Shown here: positions 914 to 39,070 of the stretch, one piece after another | How positions within the stretch are numbered: the stretch's first letter is position 1 | Layout of the letters: every line of letters starts with the position of its first letter | Source: an uncultured eubacterium 1-6 | Lineage (GTDB): Bacteria > Bacillota > Clostridia > Lachnospirales > Lachnospiraceae | DNA length: 39,327 bases | Assembly: GCA_903789595.1 (NCBI GenBank) | Contig: CAIFEZ010000018.1 | Span: 1 to 39,327, forward strand | Direction: 5' to 3' | Notes under the pieces: model-generated | What the model saw: only the letters and a program-made list of their open reading frames with translations | Databases searched by the model: none | Told to the model about the DNA's origin: nothing | Program-made: the position numbers and the translations under genes

Positions 914-1018
914 GGTAATCGTTGAGAGAATCGGTAATCGTCGAGAGGACCGGTAATCATTGAGAGAATCGGTAATCGTCGAGAGGATCAGTAATCTCTG
1001 AGAGAGCTTGAAATCTCC
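914..1018. repeat. 19-bp tandem array after the surface protein gene
   Basis: The motif GGTAATC recurs at 914, 933, 952, 971 and (as AGTAATC) 990, an exact 19-bp spacing, with a sixth degraded copy near 1009. The units alternate slightly (GAGAGAATC versus GAGAGGACC), so the array may have grown in two-unit steps. It starts about 15 bp after the stop codon of the surface protein and ends at the terminator. Confidence 0.85.
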
Positions 1019-1021
1019 GAA

Positions 1022-1069
1022 GGGACTGGCGTGCACGCTTCATCAAGGCGCTGCAACGCCAGCCCTTTT
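1022..1069 (+). terminator. Intrinsic terminator of the surface protein gene
   Basis: GGG-A-CTGGCGT (1022-1032) pairs with ACGCCAGCCC (1056-1065), a 10-bp GC-rich stem with one bulged A, followed at once by TTTTGTGTT. It separates the surface protein from the GGDEF-like gene. Confidence 0.75.
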
Positions 1070-1146
1070 GTGTTGTGAAGGAGATCGTGGCATGTCCAGT
1101 CAATCCGTGCTAAAATGCAAGAAGCAGGTGGGAGAAATCGATCAAA

Positions 1147-1815
1147 ATGAAGAAAATGAATTTTGCAAAAACTATTCAGCTGGCAGTATTTGGGCTTTTG
1201 GCAGCTGTGGTGATATTCGAGGTAATCGTTGATAACGGCAGAAACGTGCGGTTGATCAGTTTTCTGTTGTGGGTGTCACTGGCGCTTTCCTTCTTTTTTA
1301 TTTTTCTGGACTTTAATTTTTATGCGAAAGAAGAAGAGTCCTATGAGAGGCTGATGAAGAATCTTAGCTCGGATCAGATGACGAAAATCGGTAACCGCTA
1401 CAGCATCGATAAACTGATTGACAAGTACGATAATCTGCCGCTTCCGGAGAATTTCGGCTGCGTGGTGCTTTCGCTGTCGAATATCCGCGAGATCAATGAA
1501 AAGTATGGAAGACAGGAAGGAAACGCGGCGATCCGTCGTTTTTCTCTGATCCTGAAGATGGCGTCGGTCGGACACTGCTTTGTGGGAAGGAACGGCGGCA
1601 ACAAATTTGTCGCGATGTTTGAGAACGGATCCGAGAAGACGATCCGTCATTTCCTGGACCGGATTCGTGACAAGGTGGATGCGAACAATGCGGACAGCAG
1701 CAACACGCCGATGAAATTTGAGTACGGGATCGCTTTTCATGAGGGAGAGGCGGCGAAGGAAGTCACAGATTTGATTTCTCTTGCGGACAAGAGAGTGGGA
1801 GAGGTATCGTTGTGA
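1147..1815 (+). CDS. Membrane protein with degenerate GGDEF domain
   Basis: 222 aa. Two hydrophobic helices (about residues 8-28 and 36-56) precede a cytoplasmic domain with the outline of a diguanylate cyclase: DQMTKIGNRYSIDK near residue 76 matches the start of GGDEF domains. The signature itself reads GGNKF (150-154), and the metal-binding Asp before it is replaced by Ser/Leu (SLSN at 109-112). Enzyme activity is therefore unlikely; a binding or regulatory role is inferred. The start is supported by AGGTGGGAG about 12 bp upstream. The stop overlaps the GTG start of the next gene by 4 bp, so the two are probably translationally coupled. Partner and signal are unknown. Confidence 0.7.
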   Translation: MKKMNFAKTIQLAVFGLLAAVVIFEVIVDNGRNVRLISFLLWVSLALSFFFIFLDFNFYAKEEESYERLMKNLSSDQMTKIGNRYSIDKLIDKYDNLPLPENFGCVVLSLSNIREINEKYGRQEGNAAIRRFSLILKMASVGHCFVGRNGGNKFVAMFENGSEKTIRHFLDRIRDKVDANNADSSNTPMKFEYGIAFHEGEAAKEVTDLISLADKRVGEVSL

Positions 1816-2819
1816 GAGAACATGATCCCGCGTATATTCGCGGGCTGCTGGAGGAATGGCGCCAGGGGGATGCGAATGCCTTTGCGGCGCTGTATTCCGT
1901 GACTTATCGGAAGCTGTGCGGGCACGCGTACGAGCGGCTGAAGGATATCTATCTGACACAGGACGCGGTGACGGAGACGTATCTTATCGCCGGGGAAGAG
2001 CAGAAGCCGGAACATGTTTCGCTGGTTCCATGGTTGGCTGGCATCTGCGATTCTGTGTGTGACAAGCTCCTTCGATATTCCGGTGATTCAAAAGAAAAAC
2101 CGAAGGCGGGTTTTGCAGAACCGGAAGTTCCGCAATTGGATGAGGATACTGCGGAACAGATGCTGTATAATATCCTGGATACCCTTGGGATGGAGCAGAA
2201 TACCGTACCGCTTCAGAATCTGAATATTTACATGAGTTATCGACGACAGCGAAGCCGTCTGATGACGTTGATCGTATGGATCATGGCAGCGATGATTTTC
2301 TTCCTTCCGCTTCTTTTGATCCGGCCGAATATGACGCTGGAGAAGACCTCCAACGCAGATGAAGCCGGGAGACCAGTGTATACCGTGCGGGTCAACTCGA
2401 TTCCGGAGATTTATTCGGTGACCGCGACGATCGGGAAGGATCAGATGCCGGTATACCAGGAGGGGGGAGCTGTATATACGATCCGGCCGACACAGGACGG
2501 AGTCATGCAGGTGACGGTTACGGCGGATAACCGGCGCAGCGTCCGCGGGTCAGTACTGGTCGACAGGGAGGATACCGAGCCGCCGCGTCTTGTGAAGCGA
2601 AGCGTCGATGACAATAACTCGGTGACGCTCACACTCACAGATGAGAGCGGTGTCGACTTTTCTGGAATCAGCGGAAGCAATTCAAAGGGCAAGGCGGTGA
2701 AGCCGCTGTCCGTCAATGAGAGAACCGGGGAGGTTACATTCGCGTATCCTTCAGAGAAGATAGCAGTTTCCGTGCCGGATCGGACGGGAAATGTTCTGCG
2801 ACTGATTCTGAATCCCTAG
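1812..2819 (+). CDS. Sigma-70 region-2-like domain fused to membrane anchor and outside domain
   Basis: 335 aa, GTG start with GGGAGAGG about 7 bp upstream, overlapping the GGDEF-like gene. Residues about 14-90 read like region 2 of an ECF sigma factor: DANAFAALYSVTYRKL, then a TQDAVTETYL box and VPWLAGICDSVCDKLLR, matching the usual helix order including the core-binding helix. No region 4 helix-turn-helix follows. Instead an acidic linker leads to one transmembrane helix (about 149-170) and an outside part of about 160 residues rich in beta strands, resembling Ig-like folds (DTEPPRLVKRSVDD). Orientation is inferred from the Arg-rich stretch before the helix. It could be a membrane-held regulator, or a degenerate sigma domain used for protein contacts. 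I do not recognise a named family. Confidence 0.6.
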   Translation: MREHDPAYIRGLLEEWRQGDANAFAALYSVTYRKLCGHAYERLKDIYLTQDAVTETYLIAGEEQKPEHVSLVPWLAGICDSVCDKLLRYSGDSKEKPKAGFAEPEVPQLDEDTAEQMLYNILDTLGMEQNTVPLQNLNIYMSYRRQRSRLMTLIVWIMAAMIFFLPLLLIRPNMTLEKTSNADEAGRPVYTVRVNSIPEIYSVTATIGKDQMPVYQEGGAVYTIRPTQDGVMQVTVTADNRRSVRGSVLVDREDTEPPRLVKRSVDDNNSVTLTLTDESGVDFSGISGSNSKGKAVKPLSVNERTGEVTFAYPSEKIAVSVPDRTGNVLRLILNP

Positions 2820-2830
2820 TTGAACACCCA

Positions 2831-2868
2831 AGGCGACGGAAAGCAAGAATTCACGAAATTCGTCGCCT
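2831..2868 (+). terminator. Hairpin after sigma-like gene
   Basis: AGGCGACG (2831-2838) is complementary to CGTCGCCT (2861-2868), with an additional inner GAATT/AATTC pairing. It lies 11 bp after the stop codon at the right place for a terminator, but no T run follows, so termination is uncertain. Confidence 0.4.
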
Positions 2869-2952
2869 GACGTAATGTACCCGCGGGGTGACCAGTCGAT
2901 GGAAAGCAAGCAAACAGGGAACGTTCTGGCAGGAGCGTGAAGAGCGACATTT

Positions 2953-3513: not shown

Positions 3514-3540
3514 TCGGCTTGTCGAAGGATGCAGCGCGGA

Positions 3541-3759
3541 AATATCTGGGGCAGCTATTGCGGCCGGAGGTGGATGATAATATCCGGATCAGCCATTGCA
3601 GCCGGAGGTGGATGATAATATCCGGATCAGCCATTGCAGCCGGAGGTGCATGATAATATCCGGATCAGCCATTGCAGCCGGAGGTGCATGATAATACCCG
3701 AAGCAGCCATTGCGGCCGGAGGTGCATCATGATATCCGGAGCAGCCAGTGCGGCCGGAT
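3541..3759. repeat. 38-bp tandem array, six copies
   Basis: The block CAGCCATTGCAGCCGGAGG and following bases recur with the repeat register at 3553, 3591, 3629, 3667, 3705 and 3743, an exact 38-bp period. Copies two to four are nearly identical; the outer ones are more diverged. The array fills the spacer between lepB and the transglutaminase-like gene almost completely, ending about 20 bp before its ribosome binding site. Copies are contiguous, so this is not a CRISPR. Confidence 0.92.
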
Positions 3760-5985: not shown

Positions 5986-6020
5986 AACGATGTGCGCCGC
6001 GAAGATCATGGATCGAGTTC

Positions 6021-6145
6021 GGAAGCAGATGGCACACGGGAATCGTACGAAAGCAGATGGCATACAGGAACCGTACGGAAGCAGATAGCATACAGGAACC
6101 GTACGGGAGCAGATGGCATACAGAACCGTACAGGAGCAGGCAGAT
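6021..6145. repeat. 28-bp tandem array in the pilus-like operon
   Basis: The motif GCAGATGGCATACAGGAACC recurs with its start at 6025, 6053, 6081, 6109 and (partly) 6135, a 28-bp spacing. The copies are well conserved except the first. The array occupies the gap between the GspF-like gene and the small membrane protein at 6177. Confidence 0.88.
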
Positions 6146-6557: not shown

Positions 6558-7289
6558 ATGAACCGGTTTCGGGAGAGGAGAAAATCGAATGCGTCATTGA
6601 TCGGAGCCTTTGCTGCTGTATTGCTGGCACTGTTTTTTGCCGGAAGTGCGATTCTGGTTCTTCTATTCGGCGTGCGGGAATATGAATCGACGGTCCGGAA
6701 ATCATCGGATGATTTTTCATCACGCACCCTGCTGACCTATATCACAGAAAAAATTCATCATTATGACACGGAGGGGAATATCAGTATCCGGACGGTAGAC
6801 GGCGTCCCGGTTCTCGTACTGGAAAGTGTTGATTCCGGTATAAAGTATGAGACTCTCATTTATGAATATAAGGGCAGCGTGCGGGAGCTGACCGTGACCG
6901 AGGAAAACAGATGGCAGCTGGATGCGGGAGAACCGATACTGGAAGTGAAGGCGTTCATGCCGGAGGAAATAAAACCGGGACTGTTCTATTTTGATTGTCT
7001 GGACAGCAAGGGGGAGCGGGCAAATACTTACGTATATGTACGTTCCTCGGGTTCCGGCGAAACGGATGCAGGGACCCGGACGGCGGCGTCAGAAGGGCAG
7101 GAAGCGGAGAAAACTGCTCGAAAGGCGGCGTCAGAAGGACAGGAAGCGGAGGCAACTGCTCGAAAGGCGGCGTCAGAAGGGCAGGAAGCGGAGGCAACTG
7201 TTCGAAAGGCGGCGTCAGAAGGGCAGGAACCAGGAACTGTGGATCAGTCGGCGGTGATTCAATCAGAAGGTGAGGGTCGAGCTTCATGA
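6558..7289 (+). CDS. Pilus-operon membrane protein with repetitive C-terminal tail
   Basis: 243 aa, ACGGAGG 8 bp before the ATG. One transmembrane helix (about 14-38) is followed by an outside domain to about residue 165 that resembles the DUF4860-like proteins found in clostridial pilus-like operons; this recollection is tentative. The tail from about 172 to 232 consists of four near-identical 14-residue units (AASEGQEAEATARK), coded by a 42-bp tandem array. The ATG of the next gene overlaps the stop codon (ATGA). No prepilin motif is seen. Probably an accessory subunit of the assembly machine. Confidence 0.6.
   Translation: MNRFRERRKSNASLIGAFAAVLLALFFAGSAILVLLFGVREYESTVRKSSDDFSSRTLLTYITEKIHHYDTEGNISIRTVDGVPVLVLESVDSGIKYETLIYEYKGSVRELTVTEENRWQLDAGEPILEVKAFMPEEIKPGLFYFDCLDSKGERANTYVYVRSSGSGETDAGTRTAASEGQEAEKTARKAASEGQEAEATARKAASEGQEAEATVRKAASEGQEPGTVDQSAVIQSEGEGRAS
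7080..7250. repeat. 42-bp in-frame tandem array
   Basis: Four copies of a 42-bp unit (GGCGGCGTCAGAAGGGCAGG and following) encode the 14-residue repeats in the tail of the protein at 6558-7289. The copies are almost identical, which indicates recent expansion and keeps the reading frame. Confidence 0.9.
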
Positions 7290-9631: not shown

Positions 9632-10804
9632 ATGGCAAAAATAGATATTATTTCAGGTTTTCTGGGTGCAGGCAAGACCACGCTGATCAAGAAGCTTCTT
9701 GCGGATGCCCTGAAGGGACAGCAGGTAGTGCTGATCGAGAATGAATTCGGCGAGATCGGAATTGACGGCGGTTTCCTGAAGGATGCGGGCATCGAGATCA
9801 AGGAGATGAACTCTGGATGCATCTGCTGCTCTCTGGTCGGTGATTTCGGCGTTGCGCTGAAGGAGGTCGTTGACAAGTATCATCCGGATCGTGTGATCAT
9901 TGAGCCGTCCGGTGTCGGGAAGCTGTCTGATGTCATCCGTGCGGTTGAGAAGAATGCCGGTGCTGCGGATCTTGAGCTGAACAGTGCGACGACGGTTGTC
10001 GATGTCACAAAGGCAAAGATGTATCTGAAGAACTTCGGGGAGTTCTTTAAGAATCAGGTCGAGGCTGCCGGAATGATCATCCTGAGCCGCATGGATACGC
10101 CGAAGGCCACGGACGCGAAGGTCGAGGAGGCTCTGGCGCTGATCCGTGAGCTGAATCCGAAGGCGACGGTGATCACCACGCCGGTGGAGCAGCTCAGCGG
10201 CAAAAAGGTTCTGGATACGATGGAGGGCGTGAAGATCGACCTGTCCCTCGTTGAAGATGAGGACGACGAGGACGAGCATGAGCATCATCACCATCATGAC
10301 GGCGAGGATGCGCACCATCATCACGATCATGACGAAGACGAACATGAGCACCACCATCACGATCATGACGAGGACGAACATGAACACCATCATTATGATC
10401 ACGATGACCATGATGAGGACGAGCATGATCACTGCTGCCACCACCATGATCACGATGAGGATGGACATGAGCATCACCATGATCATGACCACTGCAGCTG
10501 CGGACATCATCACCATCACCATGACGCGGACGAGGTGTTCACAAGCTGGGGGCAGGAAACGATCCGGAAGTACACCCGCGACGAGATCAGCAGCATCCTG
10601 AAGGCACTGTCCGAGTACAATACCTATGGCACGATTCTCCGTGCAAAGGGAATGGTCGAAGGAACCGACGGCAAGTGGATCTACTTCGACATGGTTCCGG
10701 AAGAGGCGGATGTCCGCGAGGGCGCGCCGGAGTATACCGGACGTCTGTGCGTCATCGGGTCCGAGCTGAAGGAAGATAAGCTGAAGGAACTGTTCAAGCT
10801 GTAA
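9632..10804 (+). CDS. G3E (CobW/COG0523) GTPase with His-rich metal-binding loop
   Basis: 390 aa; AGGAGAG about 8 bp before the ATG. Walker A GFLGAGKTT (9-17), the ENEFGEIGID segment, the family metal motif SGCICCSL (Cys63, Cys65, Cys66) and the IIEPSGVG switch are clear. The guanine motif reads SRMD instead of NKxD. A region of about 100 residues (roughly 208-305) is almost entirely His, Asp and Glu with two Cys motifs, and a CobW_C-like domain follows (FTSWGQETIRKYTRDEI to the end). Known for the family: GTP-driven metal insertion or storage. Zinc or nickel is plausible; the actual metal and client are not visible. Confidence 0.9.
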   Translation: MAKIDIISGFLGAGKTTLIKKLLADALKGQQVVLIENEFGEIGIDGGFLKDAGIEIKEMNSGCICCSLVGDFGVALKEVVDKYHPDRVIIEPSGVGKLSDVIRAVEKNAGAADLELNSATTVVDVTKAKMYLKNFGEFFKNQVEAAGMIILSRMDTPKATDAKVEEALALIRELNPKATVITTPVEQLSGKKVLDTMEGVKIDLSLVEDEDDEDEHEHHHHHDGEDAHHHHDHDEDEHEHHHHDHDEDEHEHHHYDHDDHDEDEHDHCCHHHDHDEDGHEHHHDHDHCSCGHHHHHHDADEVFTSWGQETIRKYTRDEISSILKALSEYNTYGTILRAKGMVEGTDGKWIYFDMVPEEADVREGAPEYTGRLCVIGSELKEDKLKELFKL

Positions 10805-11021: not shown

Positions 11022-11978
11022 ATGGACGAGAATGAAATTGAAGTTCCGATTTATCTGATCACGGGATTTCTGGAAAGCGGAAAAACCTCCTTCCTGAATT
11101 TTACGATTGCGCAGGATTATTTCCAGATCGACGGGCCGACCCTTCTGATTAATACAGAAGAGGGTGAAGAGGAGTACGATGAAAAGGAACTGCTGAAGTA
11201 CAATACGGTGATCGAGACGATCGATGAGCAGGAGCAGTTCAGCTACGAGACGCTTCGGGCGTTTCAGAGAAAATACAGTCCGGAGCGGGTGATCCTTGAG
11301 TTTAATCCGCTCTGGAGCGTGGACAAGCTGTGGAAGATGAGATTCCCGAGGGGCTGGGGCATCGTGCAGCAGATCGTGACGGTGGATGCGTCCACCTTCC
11401 AGGTCTATCAGACAAACATGAAGTCTCTGTTCGCGGAGATGAGCCGGCAGGCGGACATGGTGCTGTTCAACCGCTGCACGAAGGACATGCCGCTCTCCAA
11501 TTTCCGCCGGAGCTTCAAGGTTGTGAATCCGGGCTGTGACGTACAGTTCCTGGATGTGGACGGCCAGCCGGTGGATATTTTCGAGGATTCGGTTCCCTAT
11601 GATCTGGATCAGGATATTATCGATATCGATGATGTGGACTACGGAATCTTCTTCGTGGATCTCCAGGACAACCCGGACCGCTACAAGGGCAAAAAAGTGC
11701 GCTTCAAGGGCATGGTGCTGAAGAGCCGGGAAGCCGGCGCGGACTTCTTCATGCCGGCGCGCACAGCGATGACCTGCTGCGCGGCCGATATGCAGTATAT
11801 CGGCTATCTGTGCCACAGCAAGAATGCCGCAAAGCTGACCGAGGGAAGCTGGGTGCAGCTGACGGCGAGGGTCGATTATAAGTTCGTCCCCATGGCGCAG
11901 GAGGAGGAGCCTGTCTTCCAGGCAATCACAATCAAGGCCGCGGAGCCGCCGGCAGTAGAGACGGTGTATTTCAATTAA
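11022..11978 (+). CDS. G3E GTPase-like protein with YcgQ/DUF1980-like C-terminus
   Basis: 318 aa. Residues 10-24 hold a Walker A, TGFLESGKTSF, and the layout to about residue 200 follows G3E GTPases (LLINTEEGEEEYDEKELL, then ILEFNPLW, then VLFNRCTKD as the guanine motif). The CxCC metal motif of the neighbour is missing. From about 205 to the end the sequence changes: DYGIFFVDLQDNPDRYKGKK and the ARTAMTCCAADMQYIGYLC stretch resemble the C-terminal domain of YcgQ/TIGR03943 proteins, partners of the YcgR permease. A GTPase fused to this domain would be a metallochaperone linked to transport, but this is inference. No clear Shine-Dalgarno sequence is visible before the ATG. Likely cotranscribed with the His-rich GTPase. 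Confidence 0.7.
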   Translation: MDENEIEVPIYLITGFLESGKTSFLNFTIAQDYFQIDGPTLLINTEEGEEEYDEKELLKYNTVIETIDEQEQFSYETLRAFQRKYSPERVILEFNPLWSVDKLWKMRFPRGWGIVQQIVTVDASTFQVYQTNMKSLFAEMSRQADMVLFNRCTKDMPLSNFRRSFKVVNPGCDVQFLDVDGQPVDIFEDSVPYDLDQDIIDIDDVDYGIFFVDLQDNPDRYKGKKVRFKGMVLKSREAGADFFMPARTAMTCCAADMQYIGYLCHSKNAAKLTEGSWVQLTARVDYKFVPMAQEEEPVFQAITIKAAEPPAVETVYFN

Positions 11979-12130
11979 GGTCTCAGAGCCGCTGGCAGCA
12001 GAGACAGTGTATTTCAATTAAGGTCTCAGAGCCGCCGGCAGCAGAGACGGTGTATTTCAATTAAGGTCTCAGAGCCGCCGGCAGCAGAGACAGTGCGCTT
12101 CAGCGAATCGCGTGGAGCCGCCGGCAGTTG
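11943..12130. repeat. 43-bp tandem array that copies the end of the GTPase gene
   Basis: GAGCCGCCGGCAG recurs at 11943, 11986, 12029, 12072 and 12115, an exact 43-bp period. The first unit is the real 3' end of the coding sequence, with the last codons and TAA stop; the next two repeat these codons and the stop almost unchanged, the fourth is altered after GAGACAGTG and the fifth is diverged. Confidence 0.92.
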
Positions 12131-12264: not shown

Positions 12265-12374
12265 CGCGATTTTTAACGATTTATCACATTGAGAGAACCG
12301 CAGGTTCTCGGGAAGGAATATTTTTTGGCAAAAATCGGCTGAGGCCGCGTTTCCGTCTGACTGAGAAACAGAGA

Positions 12375-12440
12375 GTTAAGAAACAGGGCGTTAAGAAACA
12401 GGGTGTTAAGAAACAGGGCGTTAAGAAACAGGGAGTTAGA
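12375..12440. repeat. 15-bp tandem array before pth
   Basis: GTTAAGAAACAGGGC repeats at 12375, 12390, 12405 and 12420, with a partial fifth copy (GTTAGA) at 12435. The last copy supplies the GGGAG ribosome binding site of pth, so the site itself is part of the repeat unit. Confidence 0.92.
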
Positions 12441-13043: not shown

Positions 13044-13111
13044 ATCCGGGCCGACATTGGTCTGAGAAAGCGGGCGTTGGCATATCCGGGCCGACATTGG
13101 CCTGAGGAACA
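13044..13111. repeat. 40-bp duplication between pth and mfd
   Basis: ATCCGGGCCGACATTGG plus the following CTGAG occurs twice, 40 bp apart (about 13044 and 13084), with a partial piece (GGGCGTTGG) between. It fills most of the pth-mfd spacer. Confidence 0.75.
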
Positions 13112-16886: not shown

Positions 16887-18116
16887 ATGAAGAAGTTTAA
16901 GAAGGCGTCTCTGTGCGGAGTCCTGGCGATGGCCATGATGGTCTCTGTATTTGCGGGATGCGGAAAAGTTGACGGTACGAAGACTGCCCTGGCAGTTGGC
17001 GATGAGAATGTCAGCCTTGGTACGGCGGCGTTTTTCCTGAGATATCAGCAGGCTACAACGACCTATATGCTGAAGCAGTACGGATTGTCTTCCGGCACGT
17101 TCTGGAGCAATCAGTACACGGCGGCTACGAGCTCTCAGGATGCCATGACCTACGGAGACAACCTCAAGAGCTCCGTGAAGGACACGATTGTGCAGGATGT
17201 TCTTCTGCGCGCGCACGCTTCGGACTACAGCGTAACCATCCCGGATGAGCTGGCGACGCAGATCGCGGACGCGGCGAAGACGACTTATGAGAAGAACCAG
17301 AAAAAGCTGGATAAGATCGGTGTTTCTGAGGACAACATCAAGGAGGTTCTGGAGCTTCAGACCTACCAGCAGCTGATGTTTGATCCGATGACCGCGGATA
17401 CGGACACAAACGTTACGGATGATGAGGCGAAGCAGTCCAGCATCACCTATGCGCGGATTGCGCTGACCAAGACCGACAGCAGCACCGGAACGACGACGGA
17501 CGCTACGGATGACGAGAAGGCCACCTACAAGAAGGAGCTGGAAGAGCTTCTGACGCAGGTGAAAGACAGCGGCGACGTCGCGAATGCCGACATGAAGACG
17601 ATGGCGAGCAACCTGGACAGCACGAATATCGCCTACACCACCTATTCCTACGGCGCGGACGACACGGTAATGCCGAGTGCGGTCATCGACGCGGCAAAAA
17701 GCCTCTCTGACGGCGAGATCTATGACGGCGTGATCGACACCGGGGATTACTATTATCTGGTGAGAATGGACAAGACCTTTGATCAGGATGCGACCGAGAC
17801 CAAGAAGCAGAGCATCGTGTCAGAGAGAAAACAGACCAACTACAACAACAAGGTTCAGGAGTGGAAGGACGCCGTTCAGGTCGTTGAGGAGAGCCCGTGG
17901 AAGAAGCTTGAGGTGAACGATACCGACGCTTACACCGAGCTTGTAGCTTCTTCATCGTCCTCATCTACCTCTGTATCGGGAAGCTCCGTAACGTCATCAT
18001 CCGCGGCAGGCACAAGCGGCTCCGTAACGTCATCATCCGCGGCAGGTGCAAGCAGCTCCGCATCTTCATCGTCTGCAGCTTCGAGCAGCTCCGTGACGTC
18101 ATCGTCTGCACAGTAA
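16887..18116 (+). CDS. SurA/PrsA-like peptidylprolyl isomerase lipoprotein
   Basis: 409 aa from ATG 16887, chosen because GGAGG lies 9 bp upstream and the signal MKKFKKASL starts there; an upstream in-frame ATG at 16863 lacks a site. Lipobox VFAGC with Cys25. Residues about 35-180 resemble the SurA N-terminal chaperone fold, and 180-310 (YARIALTKTD, then DGVIDTGDYYYLVRMD) resemble a PPIC-type rotamase. The last 60 residues are almost only Ser, Ala, Thr, Val and Gly, with the unit SSVTSSSAAG repeated, a likely flexible tail. Known role of the family: folding of exported proteins outside the membrane. Confidence 0.82.
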   Translation: MKKFKKASLCGVLAMAMMVSVFAGCGKVDGTKTALAVGDENVSLGTAAFFLRYQQATTTYMLKQYGLSSGTFWSNQYTAATSSQDAMTYGDNLKSSVKDTIVQDVLLRAHASDYSVTIPDELATQIADAAKTTYEKNQKKLDKIGVSEDNIKEVLELQTYQQLMFDPMTADTDTNVTDDEAKQSSITYARIALTKTDSSTGTTTDATDDEKATYKKELEELLTQVKDSGDVANADMKTMASNLDSTNIAYTTYSYGADDTVMPSAVIDAAKSLSDGEIYDGVIDTGDYYYLVRMDKTFDQDATETKKQSIVSERKQTNYNNKVQEWKDAVQVVEESPWKKLEVNDTDAYTELVASSSSSSTSVSGSSVTSSSAAGTSGSVTSSSAAGASSSASSSSAASSSSVTSSSAQ

Positions 18117-18309: not shown

Positions 18310-19278
18310 TTGTATAACGATTTATTCTCAATCGGACCGGTTACCGTACACACCTACGGGCTGATGATCGGAATCGGCATCATCTGCGCGTATTTTCTCG
18401 CAGAGCACAGAGCAAGGCAGAAGGGCATGACCGAGCGGGAAAAGGACAAGATCTTCGGCCTGGTCATTGCCTGTGTGGTCTTCGGATTTCTGTGTTCGAA
18501 GATTCTGTATATCATTACAATTATCCCGGAGCTTGCGGCCGGAACGCTGACCCTCGGCGACGCGGTATCGAACGGATGGGTAATCTTCGGAGGACTGCTG
18601 GGCGGTCTTCTCGGCGGCATTCTCTACTGTAAATGGCAAAGGCTGAATGTCTGGCTGTATTTCGACGTGGCGTTTCCGGCGGTTGCTCTTGCGCAGGGAT
18701 TCGGACGGATCGGCTGTTTTTTCGCGGGATGCTGCTACGGCGTAGAAACGGACGGACCGATCTACCTGGAGTTTACGCATTCGAATTACGCGCCGAACGG
18801 CGTGCATCTGGTGCCGACCGAGCTGATTATGAGTGCGGGTGATTTCCTGCTCTTCGCTTTTCTGGTCTTATACGACAAAAAGTGGAAGAAGAAGGAGGGC
18901 GAGCTTGCCGGATGGTATCTGACGCTCTACAGCATCGGACGTTTCATCGTGGAGTTCTGGAGAGGCGACCTGATCCGCGGACAGGTCGGGCCTCTATCCA
19001 CCTCGCAGTTCATTGGATTGTTCACGGTGGCGGCGGGAATCCTGATCCTGCTCTATCTCCGAAGACATGATCCCGGAGCGGCCTTCCGCGCGAAAGCACT
19101 GAATGCCGAGAATGCGGAAGCAGCGCAGAACCCGGAGGAAACGGAGAATGCGGAAGCAGCGCAGAACTCGGAGGAGACGGAGAATGCGGAAGCAGCGCAG
19201 AACCCGGAGGAAACGGAGAATGCGAAAGCTGCGCAGAACCCGGAGGAAACAGGGATGACAGAGCAGCAGGAGAGCTGA
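18310..19278 (+). CDS. lgt: Prolipoprotein diacylglyceryl transferase
   Basis: 322 aa, TTG start at 18310 supported by AAAGGA upstream and by the conserved beginning LFSIGPVTVHTYGLMIGIG, which lies before the first ATG. Several membrane helices and the Lgt signature GRIGCFFAGCCYG followed by a YLEF segment are visible. The enzyme adds diacylglycerol to the lipobox Cys of lipoproteins such as those at 3793, 16887 and 23161. Unusual is the C-terminal extension from about residue 264: four 12-residue units (ENAEAAQNPEET) coded by a 36-bp tandem array, not needed for catalysis in the family. Confidence 0.95.
   Translation: MYNDLFSIGPVTVHTYGLMIGIGIICAYFLAEHRARQKGMTEREKDKIFGLVIACVVFGFLCSKILYIITIIPELAAGTLTLGDAVSNGWVIFGGLLGGLLGGILYCKWQRLNVWLYFDVAFPAVALAQGFGRIGCFFAGCCYGVETDGPIYLEFTHSNYAPNGVHLVPTELIMSAGDFLLFAFLVLYDKKWKKKEGELAGWYLTLYSIGRFIVEFWRGDLIRGQVGPLSTSQFIGLFTVAAGILILLYLRRHDPGAAFRAKALNAENAEAAQNPEETENAEAAQNSEETENAEAAQNPEETENAKAAQNPEETGMTEQQES
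19104..19255. repeat. 36-bp in-frame tandem array in lgt
   Basis: Four near-identical 36-bp units encode ENAEAAQNPEET (variants with S or K). The array makes an acidic, probably cytoplasmic tail. Confidence 0.9.
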
Positions 19279-21402: not shown

Positions 21403-22214
21403 CTCCGATCACCCCTTTCCGTTTCGAAATCGCGCTCCGGATCTGCCGGCGCGGGTGTTGCTTCGCGCGGTTCGTTCCCTGCGGCAGCCGGCCGGTTTGA
21501 CAGTGTGTGGTTTGCTTCGTGGAGTTCGCTTTCGGCGGCCGCCGGGTTTGTCGGTGCGTGGTTTGCTGTGTGGAGTTCATTCCCTGCGGCAGCCGGCCGG
21601 TTCACCGCCGTGCGTTTTTCTCCGAGCTTCAGAAGGGCGTCCATGGCGACAGCGAGGCCGGCGGAGAGAACGCTTCCCCACAGAATCTTGACGACGTTCT
21701 GTGTGCGCATGCCTGAAAACAGCAGATCTCCGAGCCCTCCGGCATTGATGCAGGAAGCGATCGTGGCAATGCCGATCGTCGATACCATGGCGAGCCGGAT
21801 GCCGGCGAAGATCGCGGGACGTGCGAGAGGAAGCTGGATCCGCCGCAGAATCTGCAGCTTCGTCATACCGATTCCGCGGGCTGCTTCGCGGATCCCGGAG
21901 TCTACCTCGTCAAGTCCGGTCAGAAAATTGCGCAGAAGCAGATACTGGTTGTAAATCACAAGCACGGTCACAGCCGACGGCATTCCGAGGCCCGTGAGAG
22001 GAATCAGAAGCGCGAACAGTGCCATGGAAGGAATGGAGTAGATGAGGGAAAAAGCCTGAACCAGAAACGCACCGAGCTTTGGGACTTCCACGGAGAGAAC
22101 CGTGAGGAGTGCCGCAAGGAGCACGGAGACCGCGAGCGTAATCAGGACGATTTCCAGATGTCTCGCAAGGGGAATCAGAACCTTGTCGGGGTTGGACACA
22201 AGATATCGGATCAT
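21399..22214 (-). CDS. Osmoprotectant ABC transporter permease, OpuCB-like, with repetitive tail
   Basis: 271 aa. Residues 1-200 are a normal permease (HLEIVLITLAVSVLLAALL, EAA loop with AARGIGMTKLQILRRIQLPL). After about residue 205 comes an unusual hydrophilic tail with three copies of a 17-18-residue unit (NRPAAAGNELHTANHAPT and variants), coded by a tandem array in 21440-21600. The tail is absent in typical relatives. Start and stop overlap the neighbouring genes by 4 bp, so translation is coupled. It pairs with the permease at 20764. Confidence 0.88.
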   Translation of the reverse strand: MIRYLVSNPDKVLIPLARHLEIVLITLAVSVLLAALLTVLSVEVPKLGAFLVQAFSLIYSIPSMALFALLIPLTGLGMPSAVTVLVIYNQYLLLRNFLTGLDEVDSGIREAARGIGMTKLQILRRIQLPLARPAIFAGIRLAMVSTIGIATIASCINAGGLGDLLFSGMRTQNVVKILWGSVLSAGLAVAMDALLKLGEKRTAVNRPAAAGNELHTANHAPTNPAAAESELHEANHTLSNRPAAAGNEPREATPAPADPERDFETERGDRR

Positions 22215-23021: not shown

Positions 23022-23108
23022 GCGTCTGCGCACGAACAGAGTGGATGAAAAGCGTCTGCGCACAAACAGAGTGGATGTAAAAGCGTCTGCGCACAAACAG
23101 AGAGAATG
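23022..23108. repeat. 30-bp tandem array between binding protein and ATPase genes
   Basis: GCGTCTGCGCACAAACAGAG recurs at 23022, 23052 and 23083 (30-31 bp apart). It lies in the 180-bp gap inside the transporter operon. Confidence 0.85.
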
Positions 23109-23160
23109 AAACAGATCCGCGTTCTGGTCCGGCAAACAGATAGAAATCCCGGCTTCTATA

Positions 23161-25722: not shown

Positions 25723-25840
25723 AATGTGGTATAGATCATCTTTCCGCAATGTGGTATAGGTCATCTTTCCGCAATGTGGTGCAAGTCATCTTTTCGCAAT
25801 GTGTGATACGTCGTCTTCCGCAATGCGGTATCAGTTATTT
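25723..25840. repeat. 25-bp tandem array before the sulfhydrylase gene
   Basis: AATGTGGTATAGGTCATC recurs at 25723, 25748, 25773, 25798 and (24 bp later) 25822. The first copy directly follows the ribosome binding site of the sulfhydrylase gene (read on the minus strand) and the last reaches the stop codon of the iron-sulfur protein. Confidence 0.9.
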
Positions 25841-27162: not shown

Positions 27163-27570
27163 ATGGATGAGATAATGAAGAGAAGTCATGAACTCAGGGA
27201 GGATCCGGAAAGACACTACAACTGTGCACAGGCGGTATTTATTCCGTTTGCGGAGAAAAAGGGGCTGACTCCTGAGCAGGCGAATGCGATTGCGCAGAAT
27301 TTCGGCTCGGGAATGCAGGCGGGACTGACCTGCGGCGCCATTACGGGAGGATTGATGGCGCTGGGACTGTGCGGAGCAGGGGATCCGGGGATTGCCGTGG
27401 AGCTTATGCGCCGGATCGGAAGTCTGCATGAAGGCCGTACACAGTGCAGGGATCTTCTGGCGGAAGAAGTCCGGACGCCGAAGGAGAAAAAGCCGCACTG
27501 CGACGCGATGGTATATGAGGCGGTCGAGGCGGTTGAGGAGATGCTCCGGGAACGGGGAATCACCTTCTGA
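27163..27570 (+). CDS. C_GCAxxG_C_C family protein
   Basis: 135 aa from ATG 27163, GGGAGG 8 bp upstream; a GTG at 27157 is too close. The family Cys pattern is visible: YNCAQAV (Cys21), TCGAITGG (Cys57), Cys95 in GRTQCRDLL and Cys113 in PHCDAM. Known members are small putative redox-active proteins of anaerobes, some with selenocysteine; no biochemical role is established. The end of the gene, with its stop codon, is duplicated just downstream. Confidence 0.85.
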   Translation: MDEIMKRSHELREDPERHYNCAQAVFIPFAEKKGLTPEQANAIAQNFGSGMQAGLTCGAITGGLMALGLCGAGDPGIAVELMRRIGSLHEGRTQCRDLLAEEVRTPKEKKPHCDAMVYEAVEAVEEMLRERGITF

Positions 27571-27620
27571 GGTGACGCAGTTGCGGAACGGGGAATTACC
27601 TTCTGAGGTGACGCAGATGC
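27549..27620. repeat. 36-bp duplication of a gene end
   Basis: GGAACGGGGAATNACCTTCTGAGG, including the TGA stop of the previous gene, occurs twice 36 bp apart (27549 and 27585). The second copy leads directly into the ABC ATPase fragment. Confidence 0.85.
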
Positions 27621-27784
27621 GGATCGGCGGGCTGACCCTCGGCAGGGACGACGCGGAGATCCGGAACCGGATCGGGGTTGTCTTCCAGAACAGTGTACTG
27701 GACGATCTTCTGACGGTGAAGGAGAATCTGTTCACGCGCGGCTCCTTCTATAAAATGATAATCAGAAAACAAAGAACTCTGTGA
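27618..27784 (+). pseudogene. Fragment of an ABC transporter ATPase
   Basis: About 55 codons read RIGGLTLGRDDAEIRNRIG then VVFQNSVLDDLLTVKENL and RGSFY, the Q-loop region of DrrA/ABC-2-type ATPases (VFQ plus LDDLLTV). There is no Walker A before it and no signature after it; the frame ends in an AT-rich stretch. It is a remnant of a lost transporter gene, joined to the duplicated end of the C_GCAxxG_C_C gene. Confidence 0.75.
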
Positions 27785-30905: not shown

Positions 30906-30908
30906 TTG

Positions 30909-32535: not shown

Positions 32536-32662
32536 TTACCGTTGCAAATGTTATTTTTCGCTAACCGTTATAAATGTTATTTTCACTCACCGTTATCAAT
32601 ATTATTTCTCACTAACCGTTGTAAATATTATTTCGAACTTACTGTTATAAATGCTGTTTTTT
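32536..32662. repeat. 26-bp AT-rich tandem array
   Basis: ACCGTTATAAATGTTATTTT recurs at 32538, 32564, 32589, 32615 and 32641 (ACTGTT in the last), 25-26 bp apart. It lies between the divergent promoters of the oxidoreductase and SPFH genes and could contain protein-binding sites or be simple expansion. Confidence 0.9.
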
Positions 32663-34210: not shown

Positions 34211-34263
34211 CTGCGTTTCGGTGATACGTATGATGCTGAGAAGCGCAGATCCGTATAATCCGC

Positions 34264-34352
34264 CAATCATCGGAAAAACATTTCGCCGATCGTCGGAAAA
34301 ATATTTCACCAACCATCGGAAAAATATTTCGCTGATCGTCGGAAAATAATTC
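34264..34352. repeat. 23-bp tandem array
   Basis: TCGGAAAAATATTTCNCC recurs at 34270, 34293, 34316 and 34339, an exact 23-bp period. It lies between the RHH gene and the second 96-bp element. Confidence 0.9.
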
Positions 34353-34390
34353 AACGGTACAACAATTCTCAGGAGGCAGGAGCAGATCAG

Positions 34391-34546: not shown

Positions 34547-34681
34547 GCTTACGAAAGATAAGCAGCGCGGCTAAAGAGACACTGCAGCAAAAGAAATGCT
34601 GCATCTGAAGAGACACTGCAGTTAAAGAGACCGTGCGGATGATGCCGCAGGACGTTCGGAAAATAGAATGGAGTCATAGAT

Positions 34682-37600
34682 ATGAGAACATGGAGAAGCC
34701 TGTTCACGCAGACGATGCTGACGAGAGGAAAGGAATATTATCGCGCAGGAAAGGCAAAGAAGCTTTCCTGGGAGAGTGATCCCGAGAAGCGGGGCGGGGA
34801 TATTTATGAAGCCACCGTGCGGGGAACCAGGAACTACCATGTCGTCATTAAGGCATCCGCCGGTGTGATCCGTGAGATGTCCTGTACCTGTCCTTATGCC
34901 GCGGACGGCAGCCGGTGCAAGCATGAGGCCGCGGTGCTGCTGGCAATCGAGGATGAATACGAGAAGCTTCACGCGGATCCGGATGAGAAAGAGGCAGGGA
35001 AATCCGGATCGGGTACGGAAGCTGCTGCGAATGGCAGCGGCTCGAACAGCGGATCGGATGAAGGCAATGCGGGCAAAGGAGCGAACAGCTGGTTTGGTGA
35101 GGGCGGTATCTATGATATTCTGGACCGTGACGGAAAGGTTCTGGAAAGCGGAGGTTCTGGCTTCGGAAGCCGTGACGCCGGGAATCCTCTGGCGGATTTA
35201 AGAAAGCTGTGGGAGGAGACGGCGCAGGAACGGGAGGATGCCGCGGGCGAGGAAGATGCGGAGGGATATCATCCTGATGATTACCGCTATTTTCACCCGG
35301 AAGAATTCCGGACACATCTGAAGATTTCCGCCGCAGAGTGGAAAGAGGCGGAAGAACTGCTCCACCCGGAACCGGGGAGGAAAAGTGTTTTTTCCGGAAG
35401 AAGGGGCGGCAGAAGAGGCGGGAAAAAGCCGGACTTTAAGATCCTGGAATTTCACGTATCAACAGGCTATCTGCAGGATCAGATGAAGCAGACGGGGCCG
35501 ATGGTCGGACAGGCAATTCTCCGGTTCCGGAATGATTATGATAAAAGGGCGGTTCTGATGTTTGACCAGCACCGGATCATTTCCTCACAGTGCGAGGACT
35601 GGGACTGCTATTACGATAACGGTTATCCGATGGAGAATCCGACAAAGCTTTGTATCCATGAAATCGTGGCTCTCCTGATGCTGGAGGATTATCTGAAGGA
35701 CCACAATCTCGGAGACGCGTCCAGCTATGATGCCGAAAGCTTTCTGTCGGAGTTTTCCCATAGAGACATGCCCGGAGAAGCAGGAACGGAAAAGGACGGA
35801 AATATGGGAGACCGTCCGTCCGGTATGCTCACGATGGAGCCCCGCCTCGAGCTGGAGGACGGGATGCTTTCTGCCACCTTTTATATAGGTAAAGACAGGC
35901 TGTACAAAATAAAAAATCTCAGTGAATTTGTGAAGGCCATGCAGAACCGGGACCGCATGAAATTCGGAAGCAAAACAGAATTTCAGATGGGAGAGGAGTC
36001 CCTGAAGAGTGACGAGGACAGGGACTGGTTTCATTTCATCCGGGAAGCTCTGGAGAATCATCTGGAATCTCAGAGATATATGGAACTCAGGAGCAGCTAC
36101 GCGGACAGCTATACCTTTGATTATAAGGCAAATCTGCCGCTGATCGGGAGCTGGCTGGATCGTTTTGCCGATCTGATCGGCGCGCGTCCCTTTGAATTGT
36201 GGGATAAGCATCTGAGTGCAGGTGAGGGGAAAAAGACCGTACACCTGAGAGACAAGGATATCACGCCGACGATTGCAGTTGTTCCGACACCGGAGAAAGC
36301 GACGGAACCGGTGGACGGCGTTCGCGTGACCTGTGATCTTCCCCGGCTGATGAAAGGACTGGATCATCTGTATTATTATCAGGGACAGTACCTGAACCGT
36401 GTGACGCGGGAATCCTCAGAGCGCGTGGAGATGCTTCTGCGGAATACCGGGGGCAGGCTTGATCTTGTCATCGGCCGGAATTATCTCGGGACATTTTATC
36501 ACGATGTTCTGCCGAAGCTCCGGGATATCGCGGATATCCGCGAGGAGCATACCGAACGGCTGAAGGGGCTGATCCCGCCGAAGCCTGCCTTCACGGCGTA
36601 TCTCGATTATGAGAGGCCGCTCTTGATGTGTACGGCTGAGGCCGCATATGGAAAGGAGATCTATCCGATTGCGGATGCTATTGAGGCGCAGGCTGAGGAA
36701 AAAGAGCTCATCCCTGCCTATCGGGATGCGGGAGCGGAGCTGGCTTACTGCAATGAACTGGCCCGGTATTTTGACAGGTATGATCCGGCAGTCCATGTGC
36801 TGTATTCAGAAAAAGACGAGGACAGGCTCTTTCAGCTTCTGGATCACGGCATCGATGAGCTTCTGGATTACGGAGAGGTCCGCATGACGGAGCAGTTCCG
36901 GAATCTGGGCATCCGCCGCAGGCTCCCGATGAAGGTCGGCGTCAATGTGGGAAGCAATCTGCTGGACCTCACGGTTTCGTCTGAGGATCTGACGGAGGAT
37001 GAAATCTATCAGATTCTTTACATGTACCGCCGGAAGAAAAAATACGTCCGCCTCAAGGACGGCAGTTTTTTCAAGCTGGAGCAGAACGATACCGTTGATG
37101 AGCTGAATGAGATGCTCGAGGCACTTCAGATTCCGCTGAAGGAGTTTGTGAAGGGCAAGATGGAGCTTCCCGCTTACCGCGCCCTGTATCTCGACAAGAT
37201 GCTGGAGCAGACGGAGGATCTGTATGCGGTTCGCGACCGGAAGTTCAAGCAGTTGATCAAGGAATTCAAAACGGTGGAGGATTCCGATTTCGAGGTGCCG
37301 GATTCGCTGGCGAAAACGCTTCGGAAGTATCAGAAGGAAGGCTATCGCTGGCTTCGGATTCTGGACCGCTACGGTTTCGGAGGCATCCTCGCCGATGAGA
37401 TGGGACTGGGAAAAACGCTTCAGGTGATCACCGCTCTTCTGGCGACGAAGCTCGAATCAGAGCAGGAAGAGCTGAGCGCGGCGGAAACGGAAAGACTGAA
37501 GACGAGTCTGAAGAATTCGAGAACGGAAAAAACAGAAGAGCTTTCTTCGGCAGATCCGAAAGCGGAGAAAACAGCAGAGCTTCCTTCGGCAGATCCGAAA

Positions 37601-38923
37601 GCGAAGAAAACAGTAGTGCTTTCTTCGGCAGATCCGAAAGCGGAGAAAACAGCAGAGCTCGATTCAACAGAGCCGGAACTGCCGGGCGTCAGTCTGATCA
37701 TCAGCCCCGCCTCTCTCATCTACAACTGGGAGGAGGAACTGCACCGGTTCGCGCCGGAGCTTAAGACACTGGTGGTGGCCGGCACCGCGGTAGAGAGGAA
37801 AAGCATGCTTGCGGATTATCGGGACTATGATGTTCTCGTCACCTCCTACGATCTGCTGAAGCGGGATATCGCGTCATATGACGGAATGAGTTTCCGATAC
37901 GAGGTGATCGATGAGGCACAGTACATCAAGAATCCGGGAACGGCAGCCGCAAAGGCCGTGAAACTGATTCGCGCAAAGACCAGATATGCGCTGACCGGAA
38001 CGCCGATTGAAAATCGGCTGTCCGAGCTCTGGTCAATTTTTGATTATCTGATGCCCGGTTTCCTGTATCGGTATGAGGAATTCCATTCAACCTTCGAACA
38101 GCCGATTGTAAACGGAGATGAGAAGGCGGGAGAGCAGCTCAAGCGGATGGTGGCTCCGTTTATTCTGCGCCGCCTCAAGAAGGACGTGCTGAAGGATCTT
38201 CCGGATAAGCTGGAGGAGATCCGCTACGTGCAGATGGGGAAGGAACAGCAGAAGATTTATGACGCTGAGGTTCTCCGGATGAAGAAAGATCTGTCAAAGC
38301 AGACGGATGAGGATTTCCGAAAGGGAAAACTGCAGATTCTGGCGGCTATTACAAGAATCCGGCAGATCTGTTGCGATCCGTCGCTCTGCTGTGAAGGCTA
38401 TCGGGGAGAATCCGCCAAGAAAGAGGCGGTGATGGATCTGATTCATACGCTGATCGATGAAGGCCACAGGGCGCTTCTGTTCTCGCAGTTTACCTCGATG
38501 CTGGGTCTGATCCGGGAAGAGCTTGTTCGTGAGAAGATTCCGTTCTATGAAATCACCGGCGCTACCCGGAAAGAGGAGCGGACGAGGCTTGTGCGGGAGT
38601 TTAATGAGAATCCGGAGGTGCCGGTTTTCCTCATCTCGCTGAAGGCGGGAGGTACCGGCCTGAATCTGACCGGGGCAGATGTCGTGATTCACTATGATCC
38701 GTGGTGGAACACCTCGGCGGAGGATCAGGCGACTGACCGCGCGCACAGGATCGGTCAGAAGCGGGTAGTCACCGTGTACAAGATGATCATCCGCAACTCG
38801 ATCGAGGACAGAATTCTGGAAATGCAGGCGATGAAGCGGGACCTGGCGGACCAGATCCTGAACGGAGACGCCCTCTCCAGCAGCACGATCACCAGAGAAG
38901 ACCTGATGCAGATCCTTTCCTGA
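34682..38923 (+). CDS. SWIM zinc finger SNF2-family helicase
   Basis: 1413 aa. The SWIM motif CTC-x8-CKH (Cys68, Cys70, Cys79, His81) lies in the N-terminal domain, followed by a long Gly/Ser/Glu linker and an unrecognised middle region typical of bacterial SNF2 proteins. Helicase motifs: I ADEMGLGKT (904-912), II DEAQ (1077-1080), LTGTPIENRLSELWSIFDYL, then SQFTSML, SLKAGGTGLNLTGAD and DRAHRIGQ. Between motif I and Ia (IISPASLIYNWEEEL) an insertion of about 80 residues carries four 13-residue repeats. Likely an ATP-driven nucleic-acid translocase acting on protein-DNA complexes; the specific role is unknown. ATG 34682 has no strong upstream site (GGAGT-like). Confidence 0.93.
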   Translation: MRTWRSLFTQTMLTRGKEYYRAGKAKKLSWESDPEKRGGDIYEATVRGTRNYHVVIKASAGVIREMSCTCPYAADGSRCKHEAAVLLAIEDEYEKLHADPDEKEAGKSGSGTEAAANGSGSNSGSDEGNAGKGANSWFGEGGIYDILDRDGKVLESGGSGFGSRDAGNPLADLRKLWEETAQEREDAAGEEDAEGYHPDDYRYFHPEEFRTHLKISAAEWKEAEELLHPEPGRKSVFSGRRGGRRGGKKPDFKILEFHVSTGYLQDQMKQTGPMVGQAILRFRNDYDKRAVLMFDQHRIISSQCEDWDCYYDNGYPMENPTKLCIHEIVALLMLEDYLKDHNLGDASSYDAESFLSEFSHRDMPGEAGTEKDGNMGDRPSGMLTMEPRLELEDGMLSATFYIGKDRLYKIKNLSEFVKAMQNRDRMKFGSKTEFQMGEESLKSDEDRDWFHFIREALENHLESQRYMELRSSYADSYTFDYKANLPLIGSWLDRFADLIGARPFELWDKHLSAGEGKKTVHLRDKDITPTIAVVPTPEKATEPVDGVRVTCDLPRLMKGLDHLYYYQGQYLNRVTRESSERVEMLLRNTGGRLDLVIGRNYLGTFYHDVLPKLRDIADIREEHTERLKGLIPPKPAFTAYLDYERPLLMCTAEAAYGKEIYPIADAIEAQAEEKELIPAYRDAGAELAYCNELARYFDRYDPAVHVLYSEKDEDRLFQLLDHGIDELLDYGEVRMTEQFRNLGIRRRLPMKVGVNVGSNLLDLTVSSEDLTEDEIYQILYMYRRKKKYVRLKDGSFFKLEQNDTVDELNEMLEALQIPLKEFVKGKMELPAYRALYLDKMLEQTEDLYAVRDRKFKQLIKEFKTVEDSDFEVPDSLAKTLRKYQKEGYRWLRILDRYGFGGILADEMGLGKTLQVITALLATKLESEQEELSAAETERLKTSLKNSRTEKTEELSSADPKAEKTAELPSADPKAKKTVVLSSADPKAEKTAELDSTEPELPGVSLIISPASLIYNWEEELHRFAPELKTLVVAGTAVERKSMLADYRDYDVLVTSYDLLKRDIASYDGMSFRYEVIDEAQYIKNPGTAAAKAVKLIRAKTRYALTGTPIENRLSELWSIFDYLMPGFLYRYEEFHSTFEQPIVNGDEKAGEQLKRMVAPFILRRLKKDVLKDLPDKLEEIRYVQMGKEQQKIYDAEVLRMKKDLSKQTDEDFRKGKLQILAAITRIRQICCDPSLCCEGYRGESAKKEAVMDLIHTLIDEGHRALLFSQFTSMLGLIREELVREKIPFYEITGATRKEERTRLVREFNENPEVPVFLISLKAGGTGLNLTGADVVIHYDPWWNTSAEDQATDRAHRIGQKRVVTVYKMIIRNSIEDRILEMQAMKRDLADQILNGDALSSSTITREDLMQILS
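37528..37680. repeat. 39-bp in-frame tandem array in the helicase gene
   Basis: Four units encode EKTAELPSADPKA and variants, lying between helicase motifs I and Ia. The insertion is where SNF2 proteins normally have a short loop. Confidence 0.9.
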
Positions 38924-38977
38924 GATCATCGCTTACCCAGAAAACATGCACGATGAAAATACCATATACTTTCACAT

Positions 38978-39070
38978 GGTCATTGCTTCCGCAAGGTCAT
39001 TGCTTCCGCAAGGTCATTGCTTCCGCATGGTTATTGCTTCCGTATGGTCATTGATTTCGTATGGTTATAG
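38978..39070. repeat. 17-bp tandem array
   Basis: GGTCATTGCTTCCGCAA recurs at 38978, 38995, 39012, 39029, 39046 and partly 39063, an exact 17-bp period, after the helicase gene. Confidence 0.92.

What the first reader, a model, noticed from the sequence alone, without database searches (positions are those of the whole stretch)
914..39070. Short tandem arrays fill many spacers of the window
At least eleven separate spacer arrays are visible, each with its own unit and a strict period: 19 bp (914), 38 (3553), 28 (6025), 43 (11943), 15 (12375), 40 (13044), 30 (23022), 25 (25723), 26 (32538), 23 (34270) and 17 bp (38978), plus the 36-bp duplication at 27549. At least four genes also have in-frame arrays (42 bp at 7080, 36 bp at 19104, 51-54 bp in the permease tail near 21440-21600, 39 bp at 37528). 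The units are unrelated in sequence, so they were not spread by copying one element; the shared property is the duplication process itself. This suggests a lineage-specific mechanism (replication slippage, microhomology or repair-linked duplication) with relaxed selection in spacers.
Basis: seen in the sequence. Interest (0 to 1): 0.72.

Follow-up and report, generated by a model that had tools for sequence, protein, structure and literature searches.

The report
Unrelated minisatellites throughout a gut bacterium
This gut bacterium has many short head-to-tail DNA duplications at unrelated places, most likely made by ordinary copying slippage; the arrays are real and differ between sister species, but this kind of thing is already known.

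Summary
The arrays are real: Tandem Repeats Finder (score 50 or more, period 10 or more) gives 20 in the window, and 30 dinucleotide shuffles gave 0 or 1 each. Their sequences recur nowhere in 0.8 Mb of the same genome. The genome is array-rich: 185 in 1.159 Mb outside the window, about 160/Mb, against 1 in 150 kb of E. coli K-12 by the same pipeline. The window is about three times denser still, so it is not representative. In sister species at about 80-92% DNA identity many arrays are absent or single-copy: of 15 window arrays with anchors in G011, 6 show no unit, 3 one, 6 two or more. Periods divide by three in 57 of 74 coding and 28 of 70 spacer arrays. Of 33 selected two-copy arrays, 19 share 4 bp or more at the ends, against 7.8% of simulations; over all 51 the shift is weaker. 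Best reading: minisatellite birth by short-homology slippage, filtered by selection in genes. The same kind is described for C. difficile and Methanobrevibacter (PMC6749651). What raises the rate in this clade, and why some regions are dense, stays open.

The parts
904..1005 (.). spacer array, period 19 (38 higher-order), 5.4 copies
   Evidence: TRF; no syntenic anchors in the fetched G011/G003 stretches
3541..3758 (.). spacer array, period 38, 5.7 copies
   Evidence: TRF; no anchors in the fetched G011/G003 stretches
6020..6139 (.). spacer array, period 28, 4.3 copies
   Evidence: TRF; no unit copy in the G011 interval, which has a different 30-bp array
7082..7229 (+). in-frame 42-bp array near the end of a DUF4860 protein gene (6558-7289)
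   Evidence: TRF; Pfam; no unit copy in G011
10265..10401 (+).
   Evidence: TRF; NCBIfam (below curated cut-offs); arrays in the matching stretch of G011, G003 and G015
11929..12127 (+). 43-bp array (86 higher-order) running from the 3' end of a TIGR03943-like permease gene (11022-11978) into the spacer
   Evidence: TRF; NCBIfam; 2 copies in G011; an N-gap in the G003 counterpart
12364..12438 (+). 15-bp array (30 higher-order), 5 copies, directly before the pth start (12439)
   Evidence: TRF; 2 copies in G011, 1 in G003; pth by NCBIfam
13044..13109 (.). two 26-bp copies 40 bp apart (weak 40-bp duplication) between pth and mfd
   Evidence: not called by TRF; mfd by NCBIfam
17704..17735 (+).
   Evidence: TRF; weak NCBIfam match; single copy in G011 and G003
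17982..18060 (+).
   Evidence: TRF; no unit copy in G011 or G003
19108..19250 (+). 36-bp array at the tail of an Lgt-like gene (18310-19278)
   Evidence: TRF; Pfam PF01790; G011 has a 45-bp array at the end of the aligned gene
21470..21596 (-). 51-bp array at an ORF end
   Evidence: TRF; 54-bp array in G011, no unit copy in G003
23022..23111 (.). 30-bp array over the start of an ABC ATPase ORF (22211-23065, minus)
   Evidence: TRF; Pfam; 37-bp version in G011, no unit copy in G003
25723..25831 (.). 25-bp spacer array, 4.4 copies
   Evidence: TRF; no unit copy in G011 or G003
27549..27627 (.). 36-bp two-copy duplication with 7 bp of extra end match, inside an ORF without family match (27136-27735, minus)
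   Evidence: no unit copy in G011
32538..32652 (.). 26-bp A/T-rich array upstream of a Band_7 protein gene (the listed ORF start at 32542 lies inside the array)
   Evidence: TRF; Pfam; one hit in G011 by score, two degenerate copies by eye
34255..34353 (.). 23-bp array (46 higher-order)
   Evidence: TRF; single copy in G011
34570..34631 (.).
   Evidence: TRF; 17/34-bp array in G011
37524..37659 (+). 39-bp array in an SNF2-family helicase gene (34682-38923)
   Evidence: TRF; Pfam; no unit copy in G011
38975..39065 (.). 17-bp spacer array, 5.4 copies
   Evidence: TRF; no anchors in G011/G003
39089..39168 (.).

Best explanation
These are bacterial minisatellites. At many unrelated sites a stretch of about 15-50 bp that lies between short, often imperfect direct repeats is duplicated by replication slippage (short-homology illegitimate recombination). 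Once two copies exist, further slippage or unequal exchange adds and removes copies, sometimes two units at a time, which gives the 19/38, 15/30, 23/46 and 43/86 higher-order periods. Selection removes most births inside genes unless the length is a multiple of three and the site is a tolerant tail or linker. The arrays then diverge and are lost, so sister species carry different sets. Shown here: the arrays, their independence, their differences between sister species, the frame filter, and excess end homology in part of the two-copy arrays. Inferred: slippage as the route, the direction of change (birth or loss), and neutrality in spacers. Not explained: the higher density in this clade and the dense regions.
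For: 20 arrays against 0 or 1 per shuffle, no copies of units elsewhere. Turnover: of 15 window arrays (of 20) with anchors in G011, 6 have no unit, 3 one, 6 two or more; of 8 with anchors in G003, 4 none, 3 one (two of these intervals hold an N-gap), 1 three; in reverse, of 8 G011 arrays (of 11) anchored in the window 4 have none, 1 one, 3 two or three; of 6 G003 arrays (of 8) 4 none, 2 one. Birth: in G003 a 41-bp unit, the first 41 bp of pth, is present 4.2 times; the window and G011 have it once, and a similar motif borders both ends in G003. Ends: 19 of 33 two-copy arrays with a full-length match have 4 bp or more of extra match, against 7.8% of 2935 simulated blunt duplications. Frame filter: 57 of 74 coding periods divisible by 3, 28 of 70 in spacers. 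Higher-order periods. No association with four dispersed elements: 2 of 90 spacer arrays overlap one, against 44 of 450 controls.
Against: Of 51 two-copy arrays, 17 had matches shorter than the unit and one was a double count; these 18 were left out of the 33. Over all 51 the shift is p = 0.0055 against blunt simulations and only p = 0.055 against simulations that TRF also detects. Extra end match can also be a remnant of a third copy. The unit search misses diverged copies: the G003 array at its 10576 finds none in the window although the reverse search finds three, so 'no unit' is an upper bound on absence. Slippage alone does not explain the overdispersion (index 1.9 over 58 stretches; between-contig permutation p = 0.029, 0.057 without contig C18) or the correlation of density with absolute GC skew (rho 0.50, n = 41). 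Doubled units do not fold better than doubled random spacer DNA (p = 0.49), so no structural trigger was found.
Confidence: 0.8

Rival explanations
1. The arrays are functional: many are regulatory (promoter spacing, termination, DNA binding) or act as tunable contingency loci.
For: Some abut gene starts: 12364 before pth, 32538 upstream of a Band_7 gene, 23022 over an ABC ATPase ORF start. Coding arrays mostly keep frame.
Against: Many are absent or replaced in sister species at the same place; the units are not shared between sites; the flanking gene orientations of the 70 spacer arrays (18 --, 17 ++, 16 +-, 14 -+, 5 at stretch ends) look like the background by eye, with no test made.
Confidence: 0.1
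2. The strain is a mismatch-repair mutator and this made the arrays: its mutS reading frame is broken.
For: mutS in G000 lies in two frames and neither piece reaches the family cut-off; G003 and G011 have full-length open genes. mutL is present.
Against: G003 has an intact mutS and a higher array count (52 in 211 kb). TRF matches between neighbouring copies in the window arrays are 71-95% (smallest periods except 18 at 19115), and several arrays are shared with G011, so the arrays look older than a single-indel break (inference). Loops of 15-50 nt are, from general knowledge, poor mismatch-repair substrates. The break could be a sequencing error.
Confidence: 0.04
3. Assembly artefacts.
For: 2 of 5 N-gaps in the G000 sample abut an array, one of them at the window's end; 0 of 5 gaps in the G003 sample lie within 100 bp of a called array, and the G011 sample has none.
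Against: Copies within arrays differ from one another, periods in genes mostly keep frame, and related arrays appear in the assemblies of other species. Gaps at arrays suggest that assemblers lose copies rather than make them.
Confidence: 0.02
4. A mobile element or dispersed repeat seeds the arrays.
For: The clade carries several dispersed spacer elements at about 14-76 places per Mb.
Against: 2 of 90 spacer arrays overlap one of four such elements, against 44 of 450 controls; 8 of 90 lie within 150 bp, against 79 of 450. Other element families were not tested.
Confidence: 0.03

Closest known systems
Prokaryotic satellites/minisatellites surveyed by Subirana and Messeguer 2019 (PMC6749651), in particular Clostridioides difficile and Methanobrevibacter ruminantium
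   Same: Many tandem arrays with unique, mutually unrelated units; in C. difficile most are clustered in two regions; in M. ruminantium the 36 long-unit ones are scattered and at least half are judged non-coding (first of five parts of the text, and passages, seen).
   Different: Here 38 arrays per Mb with four or more copies outside the window (30 in 780 kb; 24 per Mb if 80% match is also asked), against 23 per Mb for the densest bacterial replicon in their Table 1; the detection program differs, so the comparison is rough. Here the differences from sister species are shown site by site.
VNTR/MLVA loci of bacteria (from general knowledge and search listings)
   Same: Unit length, copy numbers, location in spacers and in genes.
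   Different: Strain-level copy variation could not be tested; only differences between species were seen.
Short-homology illegitimate recombination as a source of small variable segments in bacterial genomes (PMC2884548)
   Same: That paper holds slippage between repeats, mostly under 30 bp, likely for many variable segments (passages seen).
   Different: There variable segments of three species in general, with minisatellites a small class; here tandem arrays.

Membership tests
bacterial minisatellite | head-to-tail units of about 10-100 bp above chance | tested here: met
   20 arrays against 0 or 1 per shuffle
bacterial minisatellite | arrays differ between related genomes | tested here: met
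VNTR locus | copy-number variation between strains of one species | not testable with these tools
   the genome collection holds one genome per species
transposed satellite family (as reported for Leptospira interrogans) | same unit at several genomic sites | tested here: not met
   none of the 20 arrays found elsewhere in window plus 0.8 Mb
CRISPR array | repeats separated by unique spacers of similar length | tested here: not met
   units adjoin head to tail
slippage between short direct repeats | short homology at both ends of the duplicated unit | tested here: inconclusive
   19 of 33 selected two-copy arrays against 7.8% of simulations; over all 51 p = 0.0055 or 0.055 depending on the null
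array birth by mismatch-repair loss | high array density confined to mutS-deficient genomes | tested here: not met
   G003, mutS intact, is at least as rich

The most novel reading that the evidence does not exclude
This clade has chromosomal hot zones for tandem-duplication birth that are inherited across species although many of the arrays are not: the region around mfd is dense both in this genome and in G011 with partly different arrays, pointing to a regional cause such as fork stalling, transcription conflict or exposure of single strands, in line with the link between density and GC skew. G003 does not show the zone above its own background.
Probability: 0.2. Interest if true: 0.55.

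Novelty: new member of a known kind. Interest (0 to 1): 0.33.

Why it matters
It gives a set of closely related gut bacteria in which the birth, growth and loss of minisatellites can be read site by site, and in which the question why a few prokaryotes accumulate unrelated arrays, partly in clusters, can be tested. In practice such arrays are possible strain-typing markers and places where short-read assemblies may break. The single arrays most likely have no shared function.

Tried and rejected
Replication terminus as the cause: one recalled dif-like motif with up to 3 mismatches gave no match, so position on the chromosome stayed unknown; GC skew is positive in 19 of 20 3-kb windows over C18:1-59000. 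Foreign DNA as the reason for empty stretches: one empty stretch (L165, C8) has almost no DNA match in G011 and G003, but another (L161, C4) is conserved in both, so this explains only some (two stretches tested). Composition: tetranucleotide distance does not correlate with density (rho -0.07). Purine asymmetry: a strong first result was partly an effect of unit length; with unit-length controls spacer arrays show nothing in absolute bias (p = 0.22) and a weak signed excess (p = 0.027), while coding arrays stay biased (p = 1.5e-5 and 3e-6). Hairpin-forming units: no difference. Exact duplications only: 3 in the window, so most arrays are not very recent. Hot region in relatives: G011 yes (11 of 16 arrays in 45 of 140 kb, p = 0.005), G003 no (8 of 52 in 32 of 211 kb, p = 1). 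Rfam: no family in the window at gathering score. Paper searches: tandem repeats with Lachnospiraceae (20 of 66 listed), with gut/Blautia (10 of 299 listed), Bilifractor (all 8 listed), and four on minisatellites and slippage; apart from PMC6749651 and PMC2884548 only listings were seen, and in these nothing by title or abstract dealt with arrays in this group. An early working guess that the gene at 13132 is pyruvate carboxylase was wrong: it is mfd.

Limits: genes were called by a greedy longest-ORF script, not by a proper gene finder. Stretches of relatives were chosen by known contig coordinates, not at random, and the L002-L081 loci all lie around mfd and include congeners. Contig starts are over-represented in the first G000 sample. 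Locus L171 overlaps the window by 327 bases, so arrays 38975 (in part) and 39089 entered the counts twice and 39089 those; L171 was trimmed and the double count dropped.

Full report
What was claimed and what is there. The window is G000:C18:1-39327 of a 3.66-Mb draft genome in 66 contigs. One congener, G008, has a contig whose length (160038) and mfd position fit the record NZ_VUMV01000007.1 of Bilifractor porci, so the genus is most likely Bilifractor (an inference). With score 50 and period 10 as limits there are 20 arrays, covering 5.7% of the window. Thirty dinucleotide shuffles have 0 or 1 each.

Genome-wide count. 58 further stretches of the same genome, 1.159 Mb, hold 185 arrays, about 160 per Mb. 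The window holds 20 in 39.3 kb (509 per Mb), and the next 19.7 kb of the contig 9 more (29 in C18:1-59000). So the window is a dense part of an array-rich genome. Counts per 20 kb are overdispersed (mean 3.2, variance 6.1 over 58 stretches) and tend to agree within a contig (permutation p = 0.029; 0.057 without C18). A reader who picks windows by eye will tend to pick such parts.

Other genomes, same pipeline. G003 52 arrays in 211 kb, G011 16 in 140 kb, nine other congeners together 38 in 443 kb, twelve genomes of other genera of the family 23 in 392 kb, 80 loci around mfd, mostly of the family, 132 in 1.526 Mb, E. coli K-12 1 in 150 kb. The samples are small and not random. The excess over E. 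coli is large; the excess over the family samples is about two- to four-fold.

Turnover. Contig C138 of G011 and C24 of G003 are collinear with much of the window at about 80-92% DNA identity. For each array the matching interval was searched for unit copies at half of the full score or better. Window arrays in G011: 15 of 20 have anchors; 6 show no copy, 3 one copy, 6 two or more. In G003: 8 of 20 have anchors; 4 none, 3 one (two of these with an N-gap in the interval), 1 three. Arrays of G011 in the window: 8 of 11 anchored; 4 none, 1 one, 3 two or three. Arrays of G003 in the window: 6 of 8 anchored; 4 none, 2 one. Diverged copies can be missed: one of the G003 arrays with none in the window lies in the CobW-like loop, where the reverse search finds three. 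So arrays differ on the time scale of species splits; which differences are births and which are losses is known only where a third genome helps. The cleanest birth is in G003: the first 41 bp of pth are present 4.2 times in front of and at the gene start; the window and G011 have one copy, and a similar A-rich motif ending in ATG borders both ends of the unit in G003. At the same place the window instead repeats a 15-bp unit five times, G011 has it twice and G003 once.

Mechanism. Simple two-copy arrays without indels and with few mismatches were taken from the G000 sample (51). Where the match at lag P is at least P long (33 after dropping one double count; 17 shorter ones set aside), 19 extend 4 bp or more beyond the unit, against 7.8% of 2935 simulated duplications placed blindly. 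Over all 51 the shift is p = 0.0055 against blind simulations and p = 0.055 against simulations that TRF also detects, so this is support and not proof. Coding arrays have periods divisible by three in 57 of 74 cases, spacer arrays in 28 of 70 (28 of 68 without two double counts). Units do not fold better than random spacer DNA. They are not tied to four dispersed elements. Repair genes: over the family cut-off in this genome are mutL (12 of 13 genomes searched), recJ (12 of 13) and sbcD (13 of 21; four of the other congeners were below it). mutS lies in two frames here; in the other 12 congeners it is full-length in eight (G002, G003, G004, G007, G008, G009, G011, G012), in one open frame as two matches in G005, partial in G001, in two pieces on different contigs in G006 and not found beyond a weak paralogue-like match in G010. 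G003 with an intact mutS is as rich in arrays, so the break is not the cause.

What remains open. Density correlates with absolute GC skew (rho 0.50, p = 0.001, n = 41), and the region is also dense in G011 (11 of 16 arrays in 45 of 140 kb) but not above background in G003 (8 of 52 in 32 of 211 kb). This leaves room for inherited hot zones. C. difficile is reported to have its unrelated satellites mostly in two regions (PMC6749651; passages seen), so such clustering is not unique.

Verdict. Real, common in this genome, and well explained by slippage plus selection. A rather rich example of a known kind.

Noticed in passing
window 30904-31005 (+) and 34391-34492 (-): Two copies of a dispersed element of about 100 bp with predicted hairpins; 40 places in the 1.2-Mb G000 sample, 16 in 211 kb of G003, 6 in 140 kb of G011, none in the samples of six other congeners or in 100 other loci of the family, some of them from the genus. 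Rfam has no match in the window at gathering score. In 40 aligned copies the pairs are mostly kept but covariation is slight (1 of 28 pairs with a two-sided change). REP/MITE-like; no carrier or transposase was sought.
   Followed up: partly
window 10834-10947 and 16618-16680; L161:12957-13193: Further dispersed spacer elements, about 20-25 places per Mb in the G000 sample and also in G011; the third also in G003; the first two had no match in the G003 stretches, though short matches exist elsewhere in G003. In G011 several copies of the first two lie close together in opposite orientation, as parts of one element would.
   Followed up: partly
G000:C11:43176-45786 (L212): mutS is split into two frames by a one-base length difference near the middle of the gene; G003 and G011 have intact copies. 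Either a natural mutator or a sequencing error.
   Followed up: partly
window 39327 and L171:328-427: The window ends at an N-gap; just beyond it lies a tandem array of about 770 bp with a period of about 104 bp, so the gap may be part of a longer array.
   Followed up: no
window 42-9397: A type IV pilus-like gene set (PilC/GspF-like, PilT-family ATPase, DUF4860, a SpaA-fold protein) with several arrays between or in its genes; its first part has no DNA match in the fetched G011 and G003 stretches.
   Followed up: no
window 10265-10401: The acidic, histidine-rich loop of a CobW-like GTPase is a tandem array in G000, G011, G003 and G015 with different unit lengths, perhaps a metal-binding loop that changes length by duplication.
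   Followed up: no
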